64,000 bases of DNA from Mycobacterium sp. UM_WGJ (GTDB lineage: Bacteria > Actinomycetota > Actinomycetes > Mycobacteriales > Mycobacteriaceae): contig NZ_AUWR01000030.1 of assembly GCF_000455125.1 (NCBI RefSeq), positions 1 through 64,000 on the forward strand, in the 5' to 3' direction. A model generated the notes under the pieces. That model worked only from the letters and a program-made list of their open reading frames with translations. It made no database searches and was not told where the DNA came from. Shown here one piece after another: positions 55,889 through 64,000 of the stretch (position 1 is its first letter; each line of letters begins with the position of its first letter). Both the position numbers and the translations under genes were made by a program.

Positions 55889-56659
55889 ATGAGCCGCGAA
55901 GCGGCGGGCGCGGCCATCCGGGCTCTGCGAGAGGCGCGCGACTGGTCGCTGGCCGACCTCGCCGCGGCCACCGGCGTGAGCATCATGGGGCTGAGCTACC
56001 TTGAGCGCGGCGCCCGGAAGCCCCACAAAGGCACAGTTCAGAAGGTTGAGAATGGGCTCGGTCTGCCGCCGGGCACCTATTCGCGGCTCCTGGTCGCCGA
56101 CGACGCCGAGGCGGAGCTGGCTCAATTGATCGCCGCGACCGGATCGCAGGCGGCGGCCGCCCGTCCCGCCGGAGCCATCGTCGTCGACCGGCACAGCGAC
56201 ACCGAAGTGCTGGAGGGCTACGCGGAGGCGCAGCTGGATGCCCTGCGTTCGGTGATCGCGAGACTGCCGTCGGAAGCATCAGACGAATACGAGACGTATA
56301 TTCTTTCCGTGATCACGCAGTGCGTGAAGGCGGAGATGCTCGCGGCCAGCTCCTGGCGGGTGGCGGTCAACGCGGGCGCCGATCACGCCGCCCGACTGAT
56401 GGTGCACCTCCAGGCGCTGGAGGCCATTCGCGCTGACCTGCTGCAACGGATGCCCGGCAGCCTGACCGCTCGCTTCGACCGGGCGTGCGCACAGTCGTCA
56501 CTGCCCGAACCGGTGATTGCGGCGTTGATCGGCGTCGGCCCCGAAGAGATGTGGGACATCCGCAACAGGGGAGTGATCCCGCCCGGCGCGCTGGCGCGAG
56601 TCCGCGCCTTCGCCGACGGGTCCATGGACGCGACAGCTGGTGGCGACGAAGGGGGATAA
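55889..56659 (+). CDS. XRE-family HTH regulator (Rv0023-like)
   Basis: 256 residues, the same length as M. tuberculosis Rv0023. An N-terminal Xre/Cro HTH (about 5-62; WSLADLAAATGVSIMGLSYLERGARKP) is followed by a helical region of unknown type. It is divergent from whiB5 and 2 nt upstream of the NlpC/P60 gene, so it may control both directions. Confidence 0.92.
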   Translation: MSREAAGAAIRALREARDWSLADLAAATGVSIMGLSYLERGARKPHKGTVQKVENGLGLPPGTYSRLLVADDAEAELAQLIAATGSQAAAARPAGAIVVDRHSDTEVLEGYAEAQLDALRSVIARLPSEASDEYETYILSVITQCVKAEMLAASSWRVAVNAGADHAARLMVHLQALEAIRADLLQRMPGSLTARFDRACAQSSLPEPVIAALIGVGPEEMWDIRNRGVIPPGALARVRAFADGSMDATAGGDEGG

Positions 56660-56661
56660 CG

Positions 56662-57495
56662 GTGAGCAACGGTGAATTGGAGCTACTGACGCGCGCCAAT
56701 GATCTGTTCGCGGGCAATCCACGGCCCGCGGCACTGGAGTCCGGGCTGGAACGCTACGCCGAGTTGTTGGAGCGCAACGCCAACACCGATACCGGCGCTG
56801 GGCATGACCGCTACCGGATGGCAGTGCTTGCGCAACGGGACCTGTTGCTGGCCAACGCACGTACCGATGCGCTGGCCACGACGGTGCTGGCCGCCGTGGT
56901 CGCCGACCACGCTCACGCGCGCCGGCAGACCGACGGTGTCGTTTCCGCCGCCCGAGCCGATTCGGTGGTCTCCCCGGATACGCCTATGGCGCACCGGGAG
57001 GCGTTGCGTCGCCGCGAGGCCCGGCTGCGCGCTCAACACGCCCACGTCGTGTCGGCGCAGCATCGCGCGCTGGTCCACCGTGCGCGGTTGCGGCGGCTGC
57101 GATACCGGGGGCTGCGGCGCAGGCCAGTGGGGCTGGATCGGTTGCCGTTGCCCAACACTCGTGCCGGACTGGCGGTCCGGGCCGCACTGTCGCGGCTCGG
57201 CAGGCCCTACGTCTGGGGTGCGACCGGCCCCGACCGGTTCGACTGCTCGGGGCTGACGCAGTGGGCGTATCAGCAGGCCGGCGTCCCGCTGTCACGTACC
57301 ACCTATACACAGATCCACGAAGGAATCCCGGTGCCGCGCTCCCAGATTCGCCCGGGCGACCTGGTCTTCCCCAGCACCGGGCATGTGCAGCTGGCGATCG
57401 GGGGAAACCGGGTGATCGAAGCCCCGCACGCCGGGGCAACCGTGCAGATCAGCCCCCTGGGCGCGGATGTGGCGATCCGCCGTCCGCTGCCGTGA
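56662..57495 (+). CDS. NlpC/P60 peptidoglycan endopeptidase (Rv0024-like)
   Basis: 277 residues from the GTG at 56662 (M. tuberculosis Rv0024: 281). An Arg-rich helical N-terminus (1-150), beginning with an amphipathic LLTRANDLFAG stretch, precedes the NlpC/P60 domain (about 160-277). The catalytic Cys lies in DCSGLTQWAY (about 195), His in GHVQLAIG and the third residue in APHAG. It cleaves peptide stems. No Sec or Tat signal is visible, so export, if any, would need another route such as the ESX system nearby. Confidence 0.92.
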   Translation: MSNGELELLTRANDLFAGNPRPAALESGLERYAELLERNANTDTGAGHDRYRMAVLAQRDLLLANARTDALATTVLAAVVADHAHARRQTDGVVSAARADSVVSPDTPMAHREALRRREARLRAQHAHVVSAQHRALVHRARLRRLRYRGLRRRPVGLDRLPLPNTRAGLAVRAALSRLGRPYVWGATGPDRFDCSGLTQWAYQQAGVPLSRTTYTQIHEGIPVPRSQIRPGDLVFPSTGHVQLAIGGNRVIEAPHAGATVQISPLGADVAIRRPLP

Positions 57496-63343: not shown

Positions 63344-63404
63344 TGTCTGTCGTCCTCTGTCGCGCGTCCAGGTTCTCTTCGCTGACAACCGATGCGGTGC
63401 GGTG

Positions 63405-64000
63405 TCATCGCGACGACATCGGGGTCAGCGCCTCCGGGCTGCAGTACCGGTTTTCCGCCCGGAACAACTCCACCGTAGCCAGCCAAGATTTTCCGCCGGC
63501 CGCAACCCGTACCGCGTTCCGGTCGATCTGCTCGATACTCACCTCGACCGCGTCCGCTGGTGGGGGCGGTGTCCCGGGCGGCGCCACGGTGATCACGGTG
63601 GCCGGCCGCGGTGACGGCGCGATCGGCCCGTCCACCACGCTGACGGTGGTGCGCGGGGTGGGCCGGGATTCGCCGACCACGGCCACCTCGGGCATTCGGA
63701 CGCTGGCCCAGCGGGCCTTGTCCCGGGTGTGCACGCAGACCCGTTCGCCGGCACCGGCCGCCCGGATGACGATGCGCTTGGCGATCAGGTCCTCGGCGGC
63801 GATGAACACCCGGCTCAACTCACCGGAGTCGGTCAGCGGCACCATCAGCCGATCGCCGTTGGCCAGCTTGCCGATCAGCACGCCCGACGGACCGATCTCG
63901 AGGGGCAGGCTGGCCGGTAACCGGCCGGGCCGCAGGCCGCGCAGCTGGGGGCGAGGCGCGCACATGTTGGCCTCCAGGGCGGCGGCCTGCTCCCCGTTGA
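63405..64000 (-). CDS. eccE: ESX membrane component EccE, C-terminal part (partial)
   Basis: The frame stays open to the window edge, so the 5' part lies outside. The visible 198 residues show the EccE-type periplasmic domain: GPSGVLIGKLANGDRLMVPL, then RIVIRAAGAGERVCVHTRD and a second half with SIEQIDRNAVRVAAGG. EccE stabilises the ESX membrane complex with EccB-D. It lies 61 nt upstream of eccA on the same strand, the ESX-2 order eccE-eccA. EccE is inferred from position and pattern. Confidence 0.75.
   Translation of the reverse strand, partial: NGEQAAALEANMCAPRPQLRGLRPGRLPASLPLEIGPSGVLIGKLANGDRLMVPLTDSGELSRVFIAAEDLIAKRIVIRAAGAGERVCVHTRDKARWASVRMPEVAVVGESRPTPRTTVSVVDGPIAPSPRPATVITVAPPGTPPPPADAVEVSIEQIDRNAVRVAAGGKSWLATVELFRAENRYCSPEALTPMSSR

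What the first reader, a model, noticed from the sequence alone, without database searches (positions are those of the whole stretch)
55889..64000. Rv0023-Rv0030-type accessory cluster joined to an ESX core locus
In M. tuberculosis Rv0024-Rv0030 is an orphan cluster, while its paralogs Rv3896c-Rv3899c sit beside ESX-2 on the other side of oriC. Here the orphan-type cluster (NlpC/P60, DUF4226, EspC-like, DUF2694, EspK-like, EspL-like) converges on eccA and eccE. The set mirrors the EspJ-EspK-EspL module of ESX-1, which suggests a complete secretion unit with its own substrate, chaperone and cell-wall hydrolase 42 kb right of oriC.
Basis: partly seen in the sequence, partly recalled or inferred. 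Interest (0 to 1): 0.72.

Follow-up and report, generated by a model that had tools for sequence, protein, structure and literature searches.

The report
Two ESX-2 modules docked tail to tail
In an environmental mycobacterium the 'orphan' gene cluster known from the tuberculosis genome sits directly against a complete ESX-2 protein-secretion locus, and comparison across the genus suggests that the cluster is the accessory half of a second, related ESX-2 lineage whose own machinery is missing here.

Summary
The cluster (55889-61491) is complete and converges, 10 bp between stop codons, on eccA. The contig continues to 82,216 and holds a complete ESX core of ESX-2 type. By its relatives the genome is a Mycolicibacter.

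The interpretation needs a twist. ESX-2 cores fall into two lineages. In lineage II, accessory genes of the Rv0024-Rv0030 type (module II) lead straight into eccB...eccA. Lineage I has accessory genes of its own (module I, Rv3896c-Rv3899c type) in that place. The window joins a lineage I block, head-on to replication, to module II, whose lineage II core is absent. Accessory and core trees disagree. Each of 36 lineage I genomes carries exactly one strong DUF2710, which suggests that module II serves the core.

Split ESX-2 loci known from print fit inversions across the origin.

Unexpected: 21 of 207 genomes keep the EccA C-terminus but lack the core; in 10 of these the deletion ends at EccA codon 446-447, in unrelated lineages, nine times as an in-frame fusion. 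That recurrence is unexplained.

The parts
55889..56659 (+). Rv0023-type HTH regulator (module II)
   Evidence: HTH_3 3.4e-11
56662..57495 (+). NlpC/P60 hydrolase with N-terminal helical domain (module II); Cys197 and His243 invariant in 17 of 17 aligned
   Evidence: start codon inferred
57561..58742 (+). DUF4226 protein (module II)
   Evidence: 6.4e-34
58758..59075 (+). EspC-family protein, candidate substrate (module II)
   Evidence: PF10824 1.5e-15
59072..59386 (+). DUF2694 (module II)
   Evidence: 5e-52
59687..61123 (+). DUF5632+DUF5631, EspK-type putative chaperone (module II)
61174..61491 (+). DUF2710 (module II), the single strong copy found in this genome
61492..61501 (.). docking point: 10 bp between the stop codons of DUF2710 and eccA
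61502..63388 (-). eccA, lineage I ESX-2; codon 446 (62051-62053) is where deletions in other genomes end
63405..64000 (-). eccE, 3' part; the gene runs on to 64964 in the contig. Beyond the window, in contig numbering, all on the minus strand unless marked: mycP 64961-66808 (longest ORF), eccD 66625-68223, MinD/ParA-like ATPase 68229-69425 (longest ORF), espG 69340-70188, two WXG100 genes 70290-70937, PPE and PE 71053-72564, eccC 72646-76785, eccB 76790-78289, DUF4226 and membrane ORF 78439-79707 (plus), Rv3898-type ORF 79770-80732, DUF5631/5632 80726-82216 (cut by contig end)

Best explanation
The window holds the join of two related units. Unit 1 is a complete ESX-2 type VII secretion system of lineage I, kept as one block on the minus strand from a reduced module I (DUF5631, Rv3898-type) through eccB to eccA. 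Unit 2 is accessory module II (Rv0023-Rv0030 type), whose genes in other mycobacteria run directly into a lineage II core. Here no lineage II core is left and a lineage I block lies tail-to-tail against it. The likely working: EccB/C/D/E with MycP form the inner-membrane channel; EccC draws out the Esx and PE/PPE pairs; EspG escorts PE/PPE and EccA recycles it; DUF5631/5632 proteins act like EspK as chaperones for EspB-like cargo; the NlpC/P60 enzyme trims peptidoglycan. Module II supplies this core with the DUF2710 (and a wall hydrolase) that module I lacks here. Shown: gene content, order, core lineages, distribution. Inferred: the biochemical roles (from the known families) and that module II works with this core.
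For: ESX-2 identity: EccC 394 bits over 266 aa to 6jd5 (EccC2), against 99, 67 and 46 for solved fragments of that region from EccC5, EccCb1 and EccC3; the right DUF5631 gives 245 bits to 5imu against 111 for the left one. Two core lineages: X+M and A+S, support 100 each, rooted on pMpg-2. Lineage II in ancestral order: 10 A loci. Lineage I in the same order with its own module: G058 throughout; G051 and G017 over two contigs or part. Accessory tree: M+S one clade (100), X apart (99), while the core joins M with X. gyrB joins a lineage I and a lineage II genome as sisters, 96. Coupling: 36 of 36 lineage I genomes have exactly one strong DUF2710; 33 score 158 bits or more (module II type, 16 of them mapped) and 3 about 107 (module I type). 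Four M stretches that reach past eccB show no DUF2710_I; five X stretches show neither DUF2710_I nor SLT_I.
Against: No functional data. Full-length EccC5 scores more in total (581 bits over 1361 aa) because no full-length EccC2 is in the PDB list. Module II persists after core loss (G101, G181, G056, G030, G148), so it may have a role without ESX-2. Five of the 10 A loci carry only DUF5631 and DUF2710 of module II. A gene like the N-part of SLT_I also sits between DUF2710 and eccB on pMpg-2 and in some lineage II loci, so that gene does not mark lineage I. The join is not universal in the clade: in G292 and G351 the core lies elsewhere. How lineage I came beside module II (transfer, or old duplication with loss) is open, and gyrB alone is a weak species tree. 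Pfam, NCBIfam and solved structures gave no SLT hit.
Confidence: 0.68

Rival explanations
1. One inherited unit, inverted in place: module II and this core always belonged together, and in Mycolicibacter the core simply flipped behind DUF2710.
For: Same neighbourhood as the ancestral order, one local inversion is enough, and the junction is kept in 18 of 22 genomes with EccA C-termini at least 89% identical (2 of the other 4 are core deletions, 2 have the core elsewhere). This was my own first reading.
Against: The core groups with M and P, not with the cores that follow module II elsewhere. The flipped block carries module I at its far end. Accessory and core trees disagree.
Confidence: 0.22
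2. Chance neighbours: module II is a relic of a lost lineage II core and does not work with this ESX-2.
For: Repeated core loss with module II retained; module II sits tens of kb from the lineage I core in M genomes.
Against: Exactly one strong DUF2710 in 36 of 36 lineage I genomes, and co-distribution 68/7/2/81 of 158 (of the 7 with DUF2710 alone, five are core deletions and two are incomplete genomes). Related genomes are not independent.
Confidence: 0.3
3. The 'split' and displaced ESX-2 loci come from transposition or lateral gain of eccB-eccC, as proposed in print, not from inversions.
For: PMC4791881 (passages) speaks of transposition of EccB2 and EccC2 in the M. avium complex; PMC6616192 (passages) proposes lateral gain for M. 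paragordonae.
Against: In 6 of 6 S genomes the two halves lie on opposite sides of gyrB with strands mirrored, as one origin-spanning inversion predicts, and S nests inside A. G046, lineage I, shows the same mirror pattern for eccB against PE...eccA.
Confidence: 0.15

Closest known systems
ESX-2 of M. tuberculosis (Rv3884c-Rv3895c, with Rv3899c beside it)
   Same: Core gene set; EccC2 orthology; an Rv3899c-type gene on the eccB side
   Different: In print it lies next to ESX-1 (PMC6616192 passage). Here it is right of oriC, head-on to replication, against module II
pMpg-2 plasmid ESX of M. paragordonae (NZ_CP025548)
   Same: DUF5631, DUF4226, EspC-like, DUF2694, DUF2710 and the whole core on one strand, core after DUF2710
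   Different: Co-directional throughout except one small ORF; an IS element and other ORFs lie between DUF5631 and DUF4226; one gene lies between DUF2710 and eccB; EccC 44.7% identical; no HTH match, and only the N-part of the NlpC protein matches (32% over 159 aa)
Split ESX-2 of M. paragordonae, M. decipiens, M. riyadhense
   Same: ESX-2 in two places; low identity to Mtb ESX-2 in decipiens and riyadhense would fit lineage II (PMC11237670, PMC6616192, passages; not tested on their sequences)
   Different: The core itself is cut in two there; here it is intact. The passages read do not mention the Rv0023-Rv0030 cluster
ESX-1 EspJ-EspK-EspL module
   Same: EspK C-terminal fold resembles Rv3899c and Rv0029 (PMC9811218 passage)
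   Different: DUF2710-EspL likeness is only a weak YbaB match; EspJ not compared

Membership tests
ESX-2 type VII secretion system | eccA-E, mycP, esx pair, PE/PPE and espG all present | tested here: met
ESX-2 type VII secretion system | EccC closer to EccC2 than to EccC of ESX-1, -3, -5 | tested here: met
   over the C-terminal region 394 bits against 99, 67, 46; full-length EccC5 totals 581 over 1361 aa with no full-length EccC2 to compare; ESX-4 not represented
ESX-2 type VII secretion system | MinD/ParA-type ATPase between espG and eccD (recalled as Rv3888c; seen on pMpg-2) | tested here: met
   (MinD/Ssd-like, below curated cut-offs)
ESX-2 type VII secretion system | Lies beside ESX-1 mycP1, as in M. 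tuberculosis | tested here: not met
   eccA lies beside DUF2710; a matter of position, not of machinery
ESX-2 type VII secretion system | Secretes EsxC/EsxD-type substrates | not testable with these tools
   needs a secretion assay
Rv0023-Rv0030 cluster | HTH, NlpC/P60, DUF4226, EspC, DUF2694, DUF5631, DUF2710 in this order | tested here: met
   the assignment of each domain to an Rv number is partly recalled
ESX-1 EspJ-EspK-EspL module | EspK-type C-terminal domain | tested here: met
   both DUF5631 proteins match 5imu, whose fold is like EspK's (PMC9811218 passage)
ESX-1 EspJ-EspK-EspL module | EspL (YbaB-like) protein | tested here: inconclusive
   DUF2710 to YbaB 0.0079, below cut-off; no solved relative; structure prediction was off
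ESX-1 EspJ-EspK-EspL module | EspJ homologue | not tested
   -
Plasmid ESX (ESX-P) | Core close to plasmid systems | tested here: not met
   best plasmid EccC 44.7%, the other 24 listed of 239 records at most 36%

The most novel reading that the evidence does not exclude
The ESX-2 core is removed again and again by a site-focused deletion. In unrelated mycobacteria the cut ends at the same EccA codon (446-447, just after Walker B; less often 467 or 378) and joins, mostly in frame, to DUF2710, eccB or eccC. A mini-gene for the EccA C-terminus is left beside module II. This would mean a recombination hot spot, selection for a stand-alone EccA C-terminal protein, or both.
Probability: 0.4. Interest if true: 0.82.

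Novelty: new variant of a known kind. Interest (0 to 1): 0.66.

Why it matters
ESX-2 is among the least understood mycobacterial ESX systems. It was described as restricted to slow growers (PMC4791881, passages); here ESX-2-type cores appear in 70 of 158 genomes of the genus, in two lineages never found together. The two-lineage view offers one account of the orphan Rv0023-Rv0030 cluster, of paralogous genes on both sides of oriC, and of the split or oddly divergent ESX-2 loci that a 2024 paper left open (PMC11237670, passages). It gives a testable claim: the orphan cluster serves ESX-2.

Tried and rejected
Rejected: (1) my first idea, an in-place inversion of one inherited unit, now the first rival, after the core and accessory trees disagreed and module I was found in ancestral order. 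(2) Microhomology as the cause of the recurrent deletion junctions: by eye the bases shared at the joins are 1-4; the eccB codon 14 join alone has a longer match (7 bases) one codon further on. (3) Spread of one deletion allele between species as the cause of the DUF2710-EccA joins: flanks are nearest the own sister clearly for G151, narrowly for G030 on both sides and for G148 on the right; for G184 the left flank is nearer another deletion genome (8 against 9). (4) The doubled eccA of G150: its stretch seems cut by 100-base gaps (inferred from a self-comparison). (5) dN/dS of the eccB5-EccA467 mini-genes (median 0.065 over 28 pairs, intact 0.070 over 78 pairs) as proof of function: the deletions look recent, so it proves little.
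Full report
What is there. It converges on eccA with 10 bp between stop codons. The contig runs on to 82,216. On the minus strand it carries eccA, eccE, mycP, eccD, a MinD/ParA-like ATPase, espG, two WXG100 genes, PPE, PE, eccC and eccB. Beyond eccB come a DUF4226 gene and a membrane ORF on the plus strand, then an Rv3898-type ORF and a DUF5631/5632 gene on the minus strand, cut by the contig end. The nearest named relatives listed are Mycolicibacter nonchromogenicus, icosiumassiliensis and heraklionensis (DUF2710 95-96%; the own record may be left out there).

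It is ESX-2. EccC gives 394 bits over 266 residues to the solved EccC2 fragment 6jd5, against 99, 67 and 46 for fragments of that region from EccC5, EccCb1 and EccC3; full-length EccC5 totals 581 bits over 1361 residues, and no full-length EccC2 is held. EccB gives 303 bits to EccB5, 268 to EccB3 and 224 to EccB1, with no EccB2 in the list. The right-hand DUF5631 protein gives 245 bits to 5imu, the left-hand one 111; PMC9811218 (passages) names 5imu as Rv3899c, beside ESX-2. In 158 genomes of the genus, 70 have an ESX-2-type EccE, one locus each; the own genome has one.

Shared distribution. Of 158 genomes, 68 have strong DUF2710 and ESX-2 EccE, 7 have DUF2710 alone, 2 have EccE alone and 81 have neither (lists copied by hand into; Fisher odds ratio 393, but relatives are not independent). 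Of the 7, five are core deletions described below and two are genomes 72% and 80% complete. Three further genomes (G030, G148, G151) have only the first third of DUF2710, fused to EccA, and count among the 81.

Arrangements, from tblastn maps. A: DUF5631 and DUF2710 of module II, then eccB...eccA, core co-directional with them (10 genomes; 5 have the rest of module II too, 5 showed only those two genes in the stretch). S: module II with eccB and eccC on one side of gyrB, esx...eccA on the other (6). M: module II apart, whole core elsewhere (G026, G029, G105, G074), or core split between eccB and PE...eccA (G046, G100). P: core in A order with a different accessory set (3). X: the window type, 9 of the 158 (one of them, G150, shows only the last two module II genes in a gapped scaffold). 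In the larger sample 22 genomes have EccA C-termini at least 89% identical to the window: 18 are X by the spacing of DUF2710 and eccA, 2 are core deletions (G101, G181) and 2 (G292, G351) have the core 54 kb or more away. Against gyrB, eccE points away from the origin in 19 of 19 non-X genomes where both lie on one contig, and towards it in 5 of 5 X genomes (my own count from the listed places).

Two lineages. A tree of EccA, EccE, EccD, the ATPase and EspG, rooted on pMpg-2, splits X+M from A+S with support 100 each, S nested inside A. A larger tree puts P beside M, and X beside both. By EccE identity the 70 genomes divide into 36 of lineage I (62% and above) and 34 of lineage II (47-58%), none with both (the split was tested by tree only for the genomes). 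Accessory genes tell another story: M and S form one clade (100) and X stands apart (99) (5 of the 10 A genomes could be used). On gyrB, G143 (S) and G046 (M) are sisters at 96. So accessory genes look vertical and the core does not, whether by transfer or by old duplication and loss. Whether lineage II is the 'ESX-2AN' of M. tusciae in PMC4791881 was not tested.

Polarity. On plasmid pMpg-2 DUF5631, DUF4226, EspC-like, DUF2694 and DUF2710 genes precede eccB...eccA on one strand, with an IS element among the accessory genes and one gene between DUF2710 and eccB. Its EccC is the nearest plasmid relative listed (44.7%; the other 24 listed of 239 records at most 36%). Of 72,556 plasmid records two gave DUF2710 hits and two DUF2694 hits, pMpg-2 among both. 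In P genomes lineage I keeps the same order: DUF5631, Rv3898-type, DUF2710_I, SLT_I, then eccB; G058 is complete on one contig, G051 and G017 are seen in parts. The gene between DUF2710 and eccB on pMpg-2 matches the N-part of SLT_I (39%), and partial matches to that domain sit in the same place in G060, G282 and named loci L146, L165, L170, so this gene is probably old and not a mark of lineage I. From A, one inversion across the origin with a break between PPE and esx gives S, and one with a break before eccB would give M. PMC11237670, PMC6616192 and PMC4791881 (passages) report split or transposed ESX-2 with other or no explanations. My searches found no paper with ESX-2, inversion, origin of replication and Mycobacterium together, and one with ESX-2 and Mycolicibacter, a PE/PPE review that I did not open; subscription papers are mostly not held.

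Why module II probably works with this core. Of six M stretches fetched beyond eccB, G105, G029 and G074 show SLT_I, Rv3898 and DUF5631 of module I, G026 shows SLT_I only, and G046 and G100 were placed wrongly (their eccB lies elsewhere) and show nothing; none shows DUF2710_I. Five X stretches show neither SLT_I nor DUF2710_I. Across the 36 lineage I genomes there is exactly one strong DUF2710 each: 33 of 158 bits or more, module II type by score and by map in the 16 that I mapped, and three of about 107 bits in P. Absence of module II from P genomes rests on DUF2710 and on the stretches fetched. SLT_I and the NlpC/P60 protein share an N-terminal stretch (45% over 71 residues, E 0.005) with different catalytic ends: a domain matching phage tape-measure proteins (SLT is my name for it) and NlpC/P60, nearest RipC and RipA among named mycobacterial hydrolases (all below the NCBIfam cut-offs). 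The catalytic Cys and first His are invariant in 17 of 17, the third residue is not. No DUF2710 relative was found among solved structures.

Core loss at the same codon. In 396 genomes, 207 have an ESX-2-type EccA C-terminus (lineage I also). In 21 of them the core is gone, and 0 of 21 keep an ESX-2-type EccE; their best EccE hits are 34% identical or less. The survey sees only losses that keep the EccA C-terminus. The EccA side of the join is codon 446-447 in 10, 467 in 8, 378 in 2 and 423 in 1. Partners at 446: DUF2710 Trp30 in G030, G148, G151, G184; eccB His34 in G056, G101, G237; eccB His14 in G181; eccC in G004; unrelated DNA, not in frame, in G199. At 467 the partner is eccB Leu5 in all 8. 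Apart from G199 the joins at 446 and 467 are in frame (17 of 18); the two at 378 are not, but ATG 378 can restart. On gyrB G030, G148, G151, G056, G101 and G004 each have an intact sister (98-100). If lost cores are never regained, this needs at least 4, 3, 1, 1 and 1 events at 446-447, 4 at 467, 2 at 378 and 1 at 423 (G134 is not on the tree). Shared bases at the joins number 1-4 by eye, too few to explain repeated identical joins. PMC9241763 (passages) independently reports an 11-gene ESX-2 deletion with a partial eccA2 in most of the M. marinum complex. Five more genomes with short EccA frames were left out of the 21: G059, G347 and G360 end at contig edges; G001 and G260 were not fetched but lie near contig starts.

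Function in print. In M. tuberculosis, ESX-2 is needed, with ESX-1 and ESX-4, for phagosome permeabilisation (PMC8593097, passages). Rv0023 is in an operon with Rv0024 and is reported to repress whiB5, and that paper's discussion cites whiB5 as a regulator of esx-2 and esx-4 genes (PMC7020754, passages). The last is a published, indirect regulatory link between the module II neighbourhood and ESX-2.

Noticed in passing
EccA codon 446 (window 62051-62053, minus strand) and homologues in G030, G148, G151, G184, G056, G101, G237, G181, G004, G199: Deletions of the ESX-2 core in unrelated genomes end at the same EccA codon, nine of ten as in-frame fusions to DUF2710, eccB or eccC; mechanism unknown.
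   Followed up: partly
L208, L268, L269, L271, L272, L273, L275, L277: A second recurrent join, eccB codon 5 to EccA codon 467, in eight genomes that do not form one clade.
   Followed up: partly
L276, L278: Core deletion joining eccC near its second Walker A region to EccA near its own Walker A in two genomes, with a possible restart at Met378.
   Followed up: partly
G292 and G351 (L143, L144): Two Mycolicibacter genomes have DUF2710 and module I genes a few kb apart with no core between them; the ESX-2 core lies 54 kb or more away.
   Followed up: partly
L348 1034-2688 and 8109-9763: pMpg-2 carries two copies of an IS200/IS605 element with TnpB on either side of its DUF5631 gene.
   Followed up: no
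L285, 4314-5764 of its reverse complement: In G134 the eccA remnant starts near codon 423 next to ORFs that look like an AbiE-type toxin-antitoxin pair (by eye, not searched).
   Followed up: no
L367: G029 shows several degenerate copies of the module I DUF5631 gene and its upstream ORF in a row beside eccB.
   Followed up: no
window 61492-61501: X is the only arrangement seen with the ESX-2 core head-on to replication (eccE: 5 of 5 X against 0 of 19 others).
   Followed up: yes
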